Shown here: positions 43,209-50,300 of the stretch, in pieces | Position numbering within the stretch: the first letter of the stretch is position 1 | Layout: each line of letters starts with the position of its first letter | Source of the DNA: Bacillota bacterium | GTDB lineage: Bacteria; Bacillota; Clostridia; Caldicoprobacterales; Xylanivirgaceae | Length of the DNA stretch: 53,663 nt | Direction of reading: 5' to 3' | NCBI GenBank assembly: GCA_023621995.1 | Contig: JAMOAB010000136.1 | Span: 1-53,663 of the forward strand | Position numbers and translations under genes: made by a program | Notes under the pieces: generated by a model | What the model was told of the DNA's origin: nothing | The model's input: the letters and a program-made list of their open reading frames with translations, nothing else | The model's database searches: none

Positions 43209-44042
43209 TCAAAGGATATGGTTGAACACCCCTGCCTTGTAATTACCTATAATTTTGAAACTGGAACAATGTTTTTGAATAGCTTCTAATGCCTCACCTA
43301 CTTTTTTATCACTGAGATTACCCTCAAAATCGATATAGAACATATATTCAAAAGGCTTTGTCACTATGGGCCTAGACTGGATTTTAAGCATATTAAGTCC
43401 ATTTTCTGCAAACTGTTCCACTATTCTATATAGAGAACCAGGCCTGTGATGTAGAGATATGATTAGACTCACTTTATTGCAAGCACTATCGATCTCTCTT
43501 TCCTTGGCTATTACTATAAAACGGGTATAATTAAGTGGATTGTCGTGTATATCATGCACCAATACATTGAGGCCATAGAGCTCCGCCGCTTCCGTGCTTG
43601 CAATAGCCCCATTGCTAAACATCCCTTGTGCCTTTATCCATTCTGCACTTTTAGCCGTGTCAAAAAAAGGTATTACCCTCCAATTCGGATATTGTGATAG
43701 AAACTGGCTACACTGTTCTATGGCCTGGGGATGGGAATATACCTCTTCTATATATTCTATTTTGGAACCGGGGAGCCCTAAAAGATTATGCTTTATATCT
43801 AGATATAGTTCCCCCCTTATGTTTAGCTCATATCTATACAGTAGGTCAAACACCTTGGATATAACACCTATGGATGAATTCTCTACAGGAAGAATACCCC
43901 ACTCAGCCTCTCCATTGTCTACCGACTCAAATACCTTGTCAAAACTGTCCTTTGATATGAGCTGTTCACTGCTGCCAAAGTACATACAAGCAGCCTGATG
44001 ACTAAAGGAGCCAGGTATTCCCTGATAGGCAATGGTCTGCAT
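43209..44042 (-). CDS. pheA: Prephenate dehydratase
   Basis: Converts prephenate to phenylpyruvate, the committed step to phenylalanine. About 277 residues: PDT catalytic domain (1-180) with the active-site motif NYTRF at 171-175 and LPVENSS, and a C-terminal ACT domain (about 190-277). In the ACT regulatory motifs the usual GALV is RPGSLYRIV and the usual ESRP is QSRP (222-225), so Phe feedback may be altered. An ATG at 44060 overlaps the SD (GGGGGAGG); the ATG at 44042 has proper spacing and is chosen. It is the second gene of aroF-pheA, 37 nt downstream of aroF. Confidence 0.94.
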   Translation of the reverse strand: MQTIAYQGIPGSFSHQAACMYFGSSEQLISKDSFDKVFESVDNGEAEWGILPVENSSIGVISKVFDLLYRYELNIRGELYLDIKHNLLGLPGSKIEYIEEVYSHPQAIEQCSQFLSQYPNWRVIPFFDTAKSAEWIKAQGMFSNGAIASTEAAELYGLNVLVHDIHDNPLNYTRFIVIAKEREIDSACNKVSLIISLHHRPGSLYRIVEQFAENGLNMLKIQSRPIVTKPFEYMFYIDFEGNLSDKKVGEALEAIQKHCSSFKIIGNYKAGVFNHIL

Positions 44043-44079
44043 AGCAAAATCCTCCCCCATTTTATTTACACCTACTTTT

Positions 44080-45096
44080 TTAGTTTATTACCTTTCCCTC
44101 TAGAAGGGCAAGCTTCTCTATAGTTTTTACTAAAGCAGCAAAACGTTCTGGTTTCAACGATTCCTCCCCATCACTCTTGGCATTTTCAGGATCATTATGC
44201 ACTTCTATCATAAGGCCATCTGCTCCGGCGGCAACAGCTGCCTTAGACAGTGTCTCTACAAGTTCCCATCTGCCAGCCGCATGACTTGGATCTACTATTA
44301 TAGGAAGATGACTAAGCTGCTTTATGACCGGTATGGCACTTATATCTAGTGTATTTCTAGTATAGGTTTCAAAGGTTCTAATTCCCCTCTCACACAGTAT
44401 TACCTGGCCATTTCCCTCTGACATTATATACTCTGCCGACATAAGAAATTCGTGAATTGTAGCTGACATCCCCCGTTTTAGAAGGACCGGCTTATCTACT
44501 TTGCCAACCTCTTTTAGCAGTTCAAAGTTTTGCATATTCCTTGCACCGATTTGAAGTATGTCGGCATACTCAGAAACTAGTTCAATCTGCTGTACAGACA
44601 TAACTTCAGTTACTATTGGAAGTCCAGTCTTCTCTTTAGCTAGCTTTAAAAGTTTTAATCCTTCTTCCCTAAGTCCTTGGAAACTATATGGCGATGTCCT
44701 AGGCTTATATGCGCCTCCCCGCAAGAAATGGGCTCCCGCCCTCTTTACCTGGCGAGCAACATCGACAATCTGTTCTTCTCCTTCCACTGAACAAGGACCT
44801 GCAATTATTGACAGGTAGCCACCACCAATTCGTCTACCTTCCACCTCTATCACAGTGTCCTCTGGGTGAAATAACCTATTGGCTCTCTTGAAAGGATCTT
44901 GGACCCTCATTACCTTGTGGACACAATCCATTGCCTTTATCTGATCTGTGCTAAGTTCACTTGTATCACCTATGAGTCCAAGTATGCAATAGTTTACTCC
45001 TTGTACCTTCTGTATGGTACAACCATATCCCTCAAGTTTACTACATACCGCCTCTATCTCCTCGGGTGTTGATGATGGTTTCATAACTATTACCAC
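44080..45096 (-). CDS. aroF: 3-deoxy-7-phosphoheptulonate (DAHP) synthase, type I-beta with N-terminal regulatory domain
   Basis: First step of the shikimate pathway, condensing PEP and erythrose 4-phosphate. 338 residues. An N-terminal ferredoxin-like regulatory domain (1-70, [13 protein letters not shown]) as in the Thermotoga-type enzyme, then the TIM-barrel: [44 protein letters not shown] with metal ligands. The GTG start at 45096 has GGAGG 8 nt upstream and matches the family N-terminus; an ATG lies four codons on. It is the first gene after the attenuator at 45138-45328, which should control it together with pheA. Confidence 0.96.
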
Positions 45097-45137: not shown

Positions 45138-45164
45138 AAAAAAAAGACCCATATAATGAGTCCT
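45138..45164 (-). terminator. Attenuator terminator of the aroF-pheA leader
   Basis: 7-bp stem AGGACTC/GGGTCTT (45158-45164 and 45144-45150, two G-U pairs), 7-nt loop, then eight T in a row (45138-45145) on the minus strand. It lies 41 nt before the aroF start. Its 5' arm and loop are shared with the antiterminator. Confidence 0.8.
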
Positions 45165-45196
45165 GTATTAGAAAATATATGTCTATCTCATTATAT
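45151..45196 (-). promoter_or_regulatory. Antiterminator stem of the aroF-pheA attenuator
   Basis: Perfect 10-bp pairing ATATAATGAG (45187-45196) with CTCATTATAT (45151-45160). Forming it removes three bases of the terminator's 5' arm and its loop, so the two structures are mutually exclusive. Its 5' arm contains the stop codon of the leader peptide (45191-45193), so a ribosome finishing the peptide blocks it. Confidence 0.78.
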
Positions 45197-45328
45197 TTTT
45201 TGAGTTTCAAAATCTATTAAATTGCATGACAAGTAGCCAGCACCAAACCAAAAGCCCTGGTTAAAAAAGATAAAAAATATAAAAGCTACTGTATATAGTA
45301 TAGCACAAAGTATTGGCAAAACTGTCAT
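45191..45328 (-). CDS. Phe-rich leader peptide of the aroF-pheA attenuator
   Basis: 45 codons, ATG at 45326-45328, TAA at 45191-45193. A strong SD (GGGGAGAG) lies 8 nt upstream. Phe at 16, 18, 19, 21, 22, 26, 28 and 40: seven of the thirteen residues 16-28 (FIFFIFFNQGFWF) are Phe, with one Trp (27) and a Tyr at 32. Ribosome stalling at the Phe run would leave the antiterminator's 5' arm free; translation to the stop would mask it and let the terminator form. This is the logic of E. coli pheA attenuation. An alternative is that it is a small membrane protein, since it is hydrophobic, but its exact overlap with the two alternative stems favours a leader peptide. Not previously known to me in this group. 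Confidence 0.75.
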   Translation of the reverse strand: MTVLPILCAILYTVAFIFFIFFNQGFWFGAGYLSCNLIDFETQKI

Positions 45329-45374
45329 GTTACAAACTCTCCCCTTTAACTTTGCTATTTAAAGCCTTTTTTAT

Positions 45375-45402
45375 ATTATATGGTGTTTTTTTAAAATGTC
45401 AA
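45375..45402 (-). promoter_or_regulatory. Promoter of the aroF-pheA leader
   Basis: Minus strand TTGACA (45397-45402), 16-nt spacer, TATAAT (45375-45380), both consensus. Transcription would start near 45368, about 40 nt before the leader ATG. It is back-to-back with the DUF1538 promoter; the -35 boxes are 9 nt apart. Confidence 0.82.
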
Positions 45403-45411
45403 TGCTTTGTG

Positions 45412-45440
45412 TTGACAAAAAATCAATTTATTGGCATAAT
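45412..45440 (+). promoter_or_regulatory. Promoter of the DUF1538-PII operon
   Basis: TTGACA (45412-45417), 17-nt spacer, CATAAT (45435-45440), about 105 nt before the ATG. The leader 45441-45545 is AT-rich with no element I recognise. Confidence 0.75.
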
Positions 45441-45545: not shown

Positions 45546-46241
45546 ATGATTGTGAATGCACTTAAAGACTTATGGGCCACCACGCGAAATGTGATCCCAA
45601 TAATGTCTATATTAATACTCTTTCAATTATTTATTCTAAAAAAACCCATAGAAAATCTTAGAGTATTTATATTAGGATGTATATTTAGCATCTTAGGACT
45701 TCATTTTTTCTTAAAGGGTGTCACTACTGCTCTAATCCCCCTTGGTGAGAGTGTGGGCAAAAATATAGTCATTTTAGAAAAAAAATATTTAATAATATTG
45801 TTTGCATTTGCATTAGGATATGCCTCCACACTGGTAGAACCTGCCTTAGAAGCCCTTGCCCTTGAAGTGGAGGAAATTTCGGTAGGAGCAATACCTCACA
45901 AGGTACTCATTAACGCTGTAGCCATCGGCTTCGGACTAGGACTTTCAATCGGTATTGCAAAAATTCTTAATAATATACCTACAAAAAAAGTTATGTTGCC
46001 TCTAATGACTTTAGCTATAGTCCTTCTATACTTTGCTCCCGATGAATATGTAGCCATTGCATTTGACTCTGCAAGTGCCACAACAGGTCCTGTTAATATA
46101 CCTATAAACATGGCCTTAGCAATAGGTCTTGCTAAAGTTTTGGGGGAAGTTGACCCACTCTTAAACGGATTTGGTATAATAGGTCTTACCTCTATGGGGT
46201 CTGTTTTAACAGTACTTTTATTGGGTATAATTATGAAATAG
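45546..46241 (+). CDS. DUF1538 integral membrane protein
   Basis: 231 residues, about seven membrane helices (for example SILILFQLFIL, LGCIFSILGLHFFL, LIILFAFALGYAS, LPLMTLAIVLLYFAP). GYASTLVEPALEALA and TTGPVNIPINMALA are the conserved family stretches, the latter with a Ser/Thr-rich loop (SASATTGPVN). Function unknown. It overlaps in arrangement with a PII-like gene 11 nt downstream, so a transport function gated by a PII-like sensor is an attractive inference, as with AmtB-GlnK, but no substrate is suggested by the sequence. Many relatives come as two DUF1538 genes; here there is one. Confidence 0.88.
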   Translation: MIVNALKDLWATTRNVIPIMSILILFQLFILKKPIENLRVFILGCIFSILGLHFFLKGVTTALIPLGESVGKNIVILEKKYLIILFAFALGYASTLVEPALEALALEVEEISVGAIPHKVLINAVAIGFGLGLSIGIAKILNNIPTKKVMLPLMTLAIVLLYFAPDEYVAIAFDSASATTGPVNIPINMALAIGLAKVLGEVDPLLNGFGIIGLTSMGSVLTVLLLGIIMK

Positions 46242-46252
46242 GAGGGTTTTTT

Positions 46253-46585
46253 ATGGCTTTAACAAGTATGAAGGCTATATTTGCCATAGTTGAAAGGGGC
46301 AAAGCCGAATCCATAGTTGATGAGGCGAAGAAAGCCGGAGCTGAAGGTGCTACCATAGTATATGGTAGGGGTACTGGAGAGAAGGAATTCCAAAAATTTT
46401 TTAACCTCCATATAGAATCATCTAGGGAGATAATACTAATTGTGACAGATAAGGATAAAGTAGAGCCAATACAAGATGCCATAATAAAGGCCGGCCACTT
46501 AGATAAACCAGGTACTGGCATAGTATTTACAGTGTCCATCGACAATCTCTATGGACTTCAACATAGGGAGGATATAGATACTTAA
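46253..46585 (+). CDS. PII-family signal-transduction protein (GlnB-like)
   Basis: 110 residues with the ferredoxin-like PII core: a first strand KAIFAIVERGKAESIVDEAKKAG, a T-loop region with GATIVYGRGTGEK, and a C-terminal DKVEPIQDAIIKAGHLDKPGTGIVF segment that matches the B-loop and nucleotide region of PII. The Tyr uridylylated in enterobacterial GlnB is not present in the expected T-loop position, so modification by GlnD is unlikely. It follows DUF1538, not amt or a gln gene, which is the usual context for this divergent branch. A terminator follows. Confidence 0.85.
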   Translation: MALTSMKAIFAIVERGKAESIVDEAKKAGAEGATIVYGRGTGEKEFQKFFNLHIESSREIILIVTDKDKVEPIQDAIIKAGHLDKPGTGIVFTVSIDNLYGLQHREDIDT

Positions 46586-49477: not shown

Positions 49478-49504
49478 ACTTTTAAACATATAGCTCTTAA
49501 ATTC

Positions 49505-49758
49505 TATGATGAGGAGTAGTAGTTAAGATTAAAACTTTAAAGCGAGCCTGGGATAGTGGAAGCCTGGTAGTATAGATCTTAATGAATGGACCTCTAAGAT
49601 GTAGTGCGAAATCAAATTAGAGAGTAGCAACTATCGGAAGCCTACCGTTACCAAAGGACAGGGCATGTTAGTGCCCCATAATGAGCCGATGCCTTGTGCA
49701 TAAATTAGGTGGCAACGCGAATCAACCTTCGTCCTAATATGGATTTGAAGGTTTTTTT
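49505..49758 (+). ncRNA. T-box riboswitch, tRNA-Trp specific
   Basis: Stem I base GAGG/CCTC (49511-49514, 49591-49594), specifier loop with AGTAGTAG on the 5' side and GAA-TGG on the 3' side, specifier codon UGG at 49587-49589 (Trp), then TTAAGAT/ATCTTAA (49523-49529, 49576-49582). The T-box bulge TGGC (49710-49713) would pair with the GCCA end of tRNA-Trp. Antiterminator ATTAGG/CCTAAT (49704-49709, 49733-49738) competes with terminator AACCTTC/GAAGGTT (49724-49730, 49747-49753) followed by T7. Uncharged tRNA-Trp turns on the downstream trpP. Confidence 0.93.
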
Positions 49759-49787: not shown

Positions 49788-50300
49788 ATGAATCTAAGAA
49801 AATTTATTTCAAGTTCACTTTTGTTGGTAATAGGGCTCATACTACATCAGATCGCACCTCCGCTACTTATGGGTATGAAACCAGATTTTCTGCTCACTAT
49901 GATGTTTATCGCGATAATGCTGTCTGATGACTATAAGATGGCCACAATAATCGGTATAACATCAGGGCTCTTGACAGCAGCAACTACTACATTTCCAGGT
50001 GGACAGATTGCAAACATAATCGATAAGATAATTACCTCTCAAGTAATATTTGTACTCAACAAAGCTCTTGGAGATAATATGAAAGAATCTGTTAAAATGC
50101 TTATAATAACTACAATAGGAACACTGATAAGTGGATTTGCATTTTTAACGGCTGCACTTTTCACTGCTGGATTGCCAACATCATATAAGGCACTAGTCTT
50201 CACCGTTGTACTGCCTGCCACTGTGGTAAATACAATCGTATCAATAGTGGTATATAAGGGAGTGACGCTTGCTCTCAGACACTCAAGACTCACCTTATGA
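49788..50300 (+). CDS. trpP: Tryptophan transporter TrpP
   Basis: 170 residues, five or six membrane helices. MNLRKFISSSLLLVIGLILHQIAPPLLMG-like N-terminal helix, then GMKPDFLLTMMFIAIML and FPGGQIANIIDKI are typical of TrpP/YhaG tryptophan uptake proteins, which resemble ECF S components. In Bacillus the gene is TRAP-controlled; here a tRNA-Trp T-box stands 30 nt upstream, giving independent evidence for the substrate. SD AAAGGGG. Transcribed alone, ending in a strong terminator. Confidence 0.93.
   Translation: MNLRKFISSSLLLVIGLILHQIAPPLLMGMKPDFLLTMMFIAIMLSDDYKMATIIGITSGLLTAATTTFPGGQIANIIDKIITSQVIFVLNKALGDNMKESVKMLIITTIGTLISGFAFLTAALFTAGLPTSYKALVFTVVLPATVVNTIVSIVVYKGVTLALRHSRLTL

What the first reader, a model, noticed from the sequence alone, without database searches (positions are those of the whole stretch)
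45138..45402. Classical leader-peptide (Phe) attenuator ahead of aroF-pheA
A consensus promoter, a strong SD, a 45-codon ORF with 7 Phe in 13 codons, an antiterminator (10 bp, perfect) whose 5' arm contains the leader stop codon, and a terminator with T8 that shares bases with the antiterminator. Stalling at Phe codons frees the antiterminator; reaching the stop masks it. Low-GC Firmicutes generally use T-boxes or TRAP for aromatic genes, and I know of no described Phe leader peptide of this kind there. The pairing with the Phe-specific gene pheA explains the amino acid chosen. Weak point: the terminator stem is only 7 bp with two G-U pairs.
Basis: partly seen in the sequence, partly recalled or inferred. 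Interest (0 to 1): 0.82.

Follow-up and report, generated by a model that had tools for sequence, protein, structure and literature searches.

The report
Phenylalanine leader-peptide attenuator before aroF-pheA
A short gene rich in phenylalanine codons, followed by a transcription stop signal, probably lets this bacterium switch on its phenylalanine-making genes only when phenylalanine runs short; the same device, with a conserved RNA hairpin not catalogued in Rfam, sits ahead of aromatic-amino-acid genes in many clostridia.

Summary
On the minus strand there is a perfect -35/-10 promoter, a 45-codon leader ORF with 7 Phe in codons 16-28, a 10-bp antiterminator whose 5' arm holds the stop codon, and a terminator with U8, all ahead of aroF-pheA.

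The leader is present in all four held genomes of this family. F/Y-rich leaders with terminators precede aroF widely in Clostridia; antiterminator pairing is significant across 46 loci (p~1e-19).

It shows compensatory changes and is more stable than synonymous recodings (26/27 training leaders; 51/57 held-out hits). A T lies 11 nt after it in 25/27, where an RNA polymerase pause would be expected.

A covariance model of P1 hits 61/391 genomes of the class; 48 of 55 inspected hits precede aroF, 5 others pheA, tyrA or aroB. Phe:Tyr codon content follows pheA versus tyrA in the operon (p=0.001).

Best reading: ribosome-mediated transcription attenuation of the trp/his/pheA type, sensing charged tRNA-Phe. 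uORFs with Phe/Tyr before shikimate genes were reported in 2019 and 2021, and His leaders in Bacilli in 2010. The breadth, P1 and codon tuning are, as far as I found, undescribed. No function was tested.

The parts
45375..45402 (-). Promoter: -35 TTGACA (45402-45397), 16-nt spacer, -10 TATAAT (45380-45375)
   Evidence: 12/12 consensus matches
45339..45347 (-). Shine-Dalgarno AAAGGGGAG of the leader ORF
   Evidence: sequence
45191..45328 (-). Leader peptide ORF, 45 codons
   Evidence: homologous ORFs in L002-L004
45245..45283 (-). Control codons 16-28: 7 Phe (UUU) and 1 Trp in 13 codons
   Evidence: aromatic run conserved in relatives
45237..45260 (-). Hairpin P1 embedded in the control codons (CCAG.GC / GU.CUGG with conserved G.G mismatch); probable RNA polymerase pause hairpin
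   Evidence: synonymous-recoding test, RNAalifold, compensatory changes
45225..45226 (-). Putative pause position: RNA 3' end U 11 nt after P1, next base G
   Evidence: T at +11 in 25/27, G at +12 in 18/27; function inferred
45187..45196 (-). Antiterminator 5' arm ATATAATGAG, overlapping the leader stop codon TAA (45193-45191)
45151..45160 (-). Antiterminator 3' arm CTCATTATAT, overlapping the terminator
45138..45164 (-). Intrinsic terminator hairpin (45164-45144) and U8 tract (45145-45138)
44080..45096 (-). aroF, DAHP synthase (first regulated gene)
   Evidence: homologous to DAHP synthases
43209..44060 (-). pheA, prephenate dehydratase with ACT-type C-terminus (second regulated gene)
   Evidence: name from sequence resemblance and operon context

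Best explanation
This is a ribosome-mediated transcription attenuator of the trp/his/pheA type controlling aroF-pheA by the charging of tRNA-Phe. RNA polymerase transcribes the Phe-rich leader and probably pauses 11 nt after hairpin P1 until the first ribosome arrives and melts P1 (inferred). If charged tRNA-Phe is scarce, the ribosome stalls in codons 16-28; the arm 45196-45187, about 50 nt beyond the last Phe codon of the run, stays free, pairs with 45160-45151 and blocks the terminator, so aroF-pheA is transcribed. If Phe is plentiful, the ribosome runs to the UAA inside the arm, masks it, and the terminator 45164-45144 forms. Shown: the anatomy, its conservation, the competing pairings, the embedded hairpin with compensatory changes, and the association between Phe/Tyr codons and the downstream gene. 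Inferred: stalling on uncharged tRNA-Phe, the pause role of P1, and the sign of regulation.
For: Anatomy. Conservation in genus and family and across many clostridial families. Antiterminator: 25/46 loci p<=0.05, Fisher p=9e-20, with lineage-specific arms, in-frame Ser-Asn-Glu codons (AATGAG) in Clostridium, overlapping the stop in the window family. Folding: antiterminator probability 0.8 at 3' end 45153 and >0.9 from 45151 to 45147, terminator takes over once its 3' arm is out; -7.6 (bare 10-bp stem) against -8.3 kcal/mol. P1: 26/27 leaders more stable than synonymous recodings (p=1.6e-26), 51/57 held-out hits (p=7e-53), 31 two-sided compensatory cells with 0/500 shuffles as high, Ser codon AGC 38/39 in the motif against 84/497 in aroF. 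Target specificity: 48/55 class hits precede aroF and 5 others pheA/tyrA/aroB; 15/17 phylum hits precede aroF. Codon tuning: F/(F+Y) 0.76 in pheA-without-tyrA operons (n=9) against 0.51 in tyrA-without-pheA operons (n=46), p=0.001; genome G096 has a Phe-only leader before pheA and a Tyr-rich one before aroF-tyrA.
Against: No expression or translation data. The window's terminator is weak (-8.3 kcal/mol, two G-U) and wins only narrowly; its own antiterminator complementarity is only p=0.05 alone. Sequences are related, so combined p-values overstate independence. Phe/Tyr tuning is a trend with exceptions (L062, L100) and p=0.008 once two near relatives are removed. A Trp codon (27) lies in the run. 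P1 does not overlap the antiterminator arm, so it is not a 1:2 arm in the strict trp sense.
Confidence: 0.87

Rival explanations
1. Nascent-peptide arrest: the conserved peptide motif (W/Q-G-aromatics-S-A-G-Y/F) arrests the ribosome in response to free Phe/Tyr or another small molecule, as TnaC does with Trp, and this sets the terminator.
For: The peptide motif is conserved across families, beyond the aromatic content.
Against: Conservation is explained at RNA level: Ser codons are AGC 38/39, Ser/Gly/Cys swaps keep the paired bases, and compensatory base changes alter the amino acids (W to F, A to Y) while keeping P1. N- and C-termini vary freely. Shorter leaders with plain Y/F runs and no such motif also exist.
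Confidence: 0.06
2. A small membrane protein that happens to be Phe-rich, with an ordinary terminator behind it.
For: The window peptide has a hydrophobic stretch; no Pfam or NCBIfam match contradicts it.
Against: Relatives carry charged, Tyr-rich, shorter or differently framed peptides; the position before aroF, the antiterminator complementarity and P1 are conserved instead.
Confidence: 0.03
3. A T-box or other riboswitch controls the operon and the ORF is incidental.
For: This genome has 19 T-boxes, and order-mates carry T-boxes ahead of aroF.
Against: No Rfam family, T-box included, matches this leader at gathering threshold; aromatic codons, ORF and SD are conserved.
Confidence: 0.02
4. 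P1 is not a pause hairpin but an anti-antiterminator, a ribosome speed bump or a ligand-binding element, with attenuation otherwise as proposed.
For: Pausing was not measured; P1 has a conserved G.G mismatch and overlaps the control codons.
Against: T at +11 (25/27) and G at +12 (18/27) fit hairpin-stabilised pause geometry (his/trp geometry from general knowledge); a pause hairpin separate from the antiterminator arm has precedent in the his leader (PMC1183508).
Confidence: 0.25

Closest known systems
E. coli pheA leader (pheL) and trp/his attenuators (Rfam RF01859, RF00513, RF00514, accession numbers from memory)
   Same: Leader ORF rich in the cognate codons, competing antiterminator and terminator, stop codon near the arm, a probable pause hairpin early in the leader
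   Different: No Rfam match; unrelated leader sequence; P1 is separate from the antiterminator arm (closer to his than to trp); controls aroF-pheA in a clostridial lineage
uORFC-13-1 motif (PMC8632094), Acholeplasma and environmental sequences
   Same: uORF with Phe run and terminator directly upstream of aroF; a further base-paired substructure was noted by its authors
   Different: Reported only from Acholeplasma and environmental DNA with at least one Phe codon; its model is not held here, so homology with P1 was not tested
Two uORF motifs of shikimate genes encoding Phe and Tyr (PMC6429828, Fig. 6b; five genomes analysed, Clostridium novyi among them)
   Same: uORFs with Phe/Tyr ahead of shikimate-pathway genes; quite possibly the same family
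   Different: Only a figure legend describes them in the text; source organism, pairing and distribution are in supplements I could not open
Histidine leader peptides before hisS/hisZ in Bacilli (PMC2965389)
   Same: Classical leader peptide in Firmicutes in place of a T-box
   Different: Other amino acid and gene
T-box leader (RF00230)
   Same: Controls aroF in order-mates of this lineage and senses tRNA charging
   Different: Different RNA; absent here; the two alternate on the aroF tree

Membership tests
Ribosome-mediated transcription attenuator (trp/his/pheA type) | Translatable leader ORF with SD and a run of codons for the amino acid made by the operon | tested here: met
   7 Phe in 13 codons before aroF-pheA
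Ribosome-mediated transcription attenuator (trp/his/pheA type) | Intrinsic terminator between leader ORF and first gene | tested here: met
Ribosome-mediated transcription attenuator (trp/his/pheA type) | Mutually exclusive antiterminator whose 5' arm would be masked by a ribosome at the stop codon | tested here: met
   arm overlaps the stop codon; masking itself inferred
Ribosome-mediated transcription attenuator (trp/his/pheA type) | Pause hairpin early in the leader | tested here: inconclusive
   Hairpin P1 conserved with pause-like spacing; pausing not measured
Ribosome-mediated transcription attenuator (trp/his/pheA type) | Read-through rises on starvation for the cognate amino acid | not testable with these tools
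   needs reporters or term-seq
Rfam Phe_leader / Trp_leader | Match to the family covariance model at gathering score | tested here: not met
   no match of any leader
T-box leader RF00230 | Match to the model at gathering score | tested here: not met
   the window's only T-box is at 49497-49739 +
uORFC-13-1 (PMC8632094) | Match to its consensus structure | not tested
   model not available here
Nascent-peptide arrest (TnaC-like) | Conserved peptide residues independent of the RNA sequence | tested here: not met
   conservation follows base pairing and codon choice

The most novel reading that the evidence does not exclude
P1 plus the aromatic leader forms a distinct, old sensor class in Bacillota and some other phyla, in which the hairpin embedded in the control codons does more than pause RNA polymerase (for example, sensing ribosome position or binding a ligand directly), giving a combined Phe/Tyr readout whose codon mix is re-tuned to the operon's end product.
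Probability: 0.12. Interest if true: 0.75.

Novelty: new member of a known kind. Interest (0 to 1): 0.5.

Why it matters
Aromatic biosynthesis in Firmicutes is usually discussed in terms of T-boxes and TRAP. Here a classical leader-peptide attenuator, with a hairpin that is not in Rfam, is found in about one in six sampled genomes of this class, mostly ahead of aroF, alternates with T-boxes on the aroF tree, and its Phe:Tyr codon mix follows whether pheA or tyrA is downstream. That gives a natural series for testing how control-codon identity is tuned by evolution, and a model with which to annotate these leaders.

Tried and rejected
Pfam and NCBIfam searches of seven leader peptides gave nothing. 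Rfam gave no match on the leader in the window or 20 related loci. A simple permutation of P1 partners in the training set was weak (0.758 against 0.741 +/- 0.009) because most columns vary little; the larger alignment with held-out hits and the synonymous recoding were decisive. A first energy calculation used a register off by one and was discarded (redone). Minimum-energy folding of the full leader (z=-1.66) is uninformative because it ignores ribosome and kinetics. Homology to uORFC-13-1 could not be tested. One search's operon classes rest on limited downstream sequence (about 1-5 kb), so distant pheA/tyrA genes are missed. My first upstream scan read minus-strand loci in the wrong orientation and was redone.

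Full report
Observation. The feature lies on the minus strand. A perfect sigma-A-type promoter (45402-45375) is followed by an SD, a 45-codon ORF (45328-45191) with seven UUU Phe codons and one Trp codon in codons 16-28, a 10-bp antiterminator (45196-45187 with 45160-45151) whose 5' arm includes the stop codon, and a terminator (45164-45144, U8), then aroF (44080-45096) and pheA (43209-44060). The terminator has 9 pairs if the first two bases of the U-tract are counted, 7 otherwise.

Is it conserved? The same arrangement is present in the same genus (L002) and in two more genera of the family (L003, L004). Among aroF loci from 30 relatives and 80 named genomes, F/Y-rich leaders with an SD, usually with a terminator before aroF, are common: Clostridium ganghwense, C. 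oryzae, C. magnum, C. tyrobutyricum and C. thailandense, Ruminococcus, Lachnospiraceae, Phascolarctobacterium, Synergistaceae, Lentisphaerota. Others carry T-boxes or nothing recognisable.

Antiterminator. For 46 loci I compared the 3' part of the leader with the 5' half of the terminator against dinucleotide shuffles: 25 reach p<=0.05, Fisher p=9e-20 (relatedness is not corrected for). Arms are lineage specific but track their terminators. In Clostridium the arm TCTAATGAGT is read in frame as Ser-Asn-Glu; in the window family and L043 the same TGAG/AATGAG box sits at the stop codon. Partition-function folding of nascent RNA in the window shows the antiterminator forming first (probability 0.8 at 3' end 45153, above 0.9 from 45151 to 45147), and the terminator winning once its 3' arm is out. 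The outcome is therefore likely kinetic and could be set by the ribosome.

A hairpin inside the control codons. Codon alignment of 27 leaders showed conservation that does not follow the peptide: AGC-TGG-GGC-TA ... T-AGC-GCT-GGC, the window reading AAC-CAG-GGC ... GGT-GCT-GGC. The two halves pair around a conserved G.G mismatch; RNAalifold finds the same stem. Native sequences are more stable than synonymous recodings in 26/27 (p=1.6e-26; window p=0.007). Ser codons there are AGC 38/39 against 84/497 in aroF. In 75 distinct sequences, mostly outside the training set, 89% of cells pair, 31 cells show two-sided changes and no shuffle reaches this (the alignment was fitted to the model). Of hits outside the training set 51/57 pass the synonymous test (a few may be the same species as training sequences). 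Substitutions such as Trp-Gly/Ser-Ala-Gly to Phe-Ser/Ser-Tyr-Gly keep the pairing while changing the peptide. A T lies 11 nt after the stem in 25/27 and a G next in 18/27, matching hairpin-stabilised pause geometry as I know it from his and trp leaders; that P1 is a pause hairpin remains inference. The his leader, where the pause hairpin is separate from the terminator and an extra hairpin lies between (PMC1183508), is the closer design.

Distribution and targets. A covariance model of the segment (R1) matches 61 of 391 genomes of the class, in 35 genera, nearly always once per genome, and 18 of 398 in the phylum. Of 55 class hits inspected, 48 lie upstream of aroF, 5 upstream of pheA, tyrA or aroB-aroA, 2 unresolved; of 17 further phylum hits 15 precede aroF, one aroB-aroA, one an ACT-domain gene. 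On an aroF tree the element, T-boxes and absence alternate: the label needs at least 3 changes even on starred branches.

Which amino acid? F/(F+Y) in the run averages 0.76 for operons with pheA but no tyrA (n=9) and 0.51 for tyrA but no pheA (n=46), Mann-Whitney p=0.001; p=0.008 without two near relatives of the window. Genome G096 carries both: a Phe-only leader (F7 Y0) before pheA and a Tyr-rich one (F2 Y5) before aroF-tyrA. The window's genome has a second DAHP synthase in aroF-tyrA with no leader and no T-box, so the Phe-rich leader is tied to the Phe-specific branch. All seven Phe codons in the window are UUU.

Prior knowledge. Ribosome-mediated attenuation is textbook. In low-GC Gram-positives, His leaders were proposed in Bacilli in 2010 (PMC2965389); two uORFs with Phe and Tyr ahead of shikimate genes were drawn in 2019 in a study that includes C. 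novyi (PMC6429828); uORFC-13-1 ahead of aroF in Acholeplasma in 2021 (PMC8632094). No Rfam entry matches. The window's leader is therefore a new member of a known kind. The breadth of the family, P1 and the Phe/Tyr tuning I did not find described in the open-access papers searched.

Limits. Everything here is comparative. No starvation response, pause or terminated transcript has been measured; combined p-values ignore phylogeny; operon classes rest on limited downstream sequence.

Noticed in passing
window 49497-49739 (+): T-box leader (106.5 bits) ahead of ORF 49788-50300, which looks like a TrpP-type tryptophan transporter: a T-box and a leader-peptide attenuator for aromatic genes lie about 4 kb apart.
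   Followed up: partly
L121 upstream of 3679; L125 and L126 likewise; also L012: The second DAHP synthase operon (aroF-tyrA) lacks leader and T-box but has a conserved repeat-like GGTAGTATGG ... GAGGATGGTAGTATGG just before the start codon in three genera, possibly a binding site or translational control element.
   Followed up: no
window 45412-45440 (+) and 45546-46585 (+): A near-consensus divergent promoter (TTGACA-17-CATAAT, TG before the -10) lies, on the other strand, ahead of a membrane protein gene and a small P-II-like gene kept beside aroF in the same genus (L122).
   Followed up: no
L203 and L219 (genome G768): Two copies of the leader element 2 kb apart on one strand, one before an ACT-domain gene and one before aroF-tyrA.
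   Followed up: partly
L066, L071, L080, L092, L095, L104, L109: Shorter leaders (18-30 codons) with a plain Tyr/Phe run and a terminator but without the P1 motif, in Ruminococcus-like, other clostridial and Lentisphaerota genomes: a simpler variant of the same idea.
   Followed up: partly
class A leaders, codons after P1: A conserved AAA-AAA (Lys-Lys) stretch about 13 nt after P1, with no assigned role.
   Followed up: no
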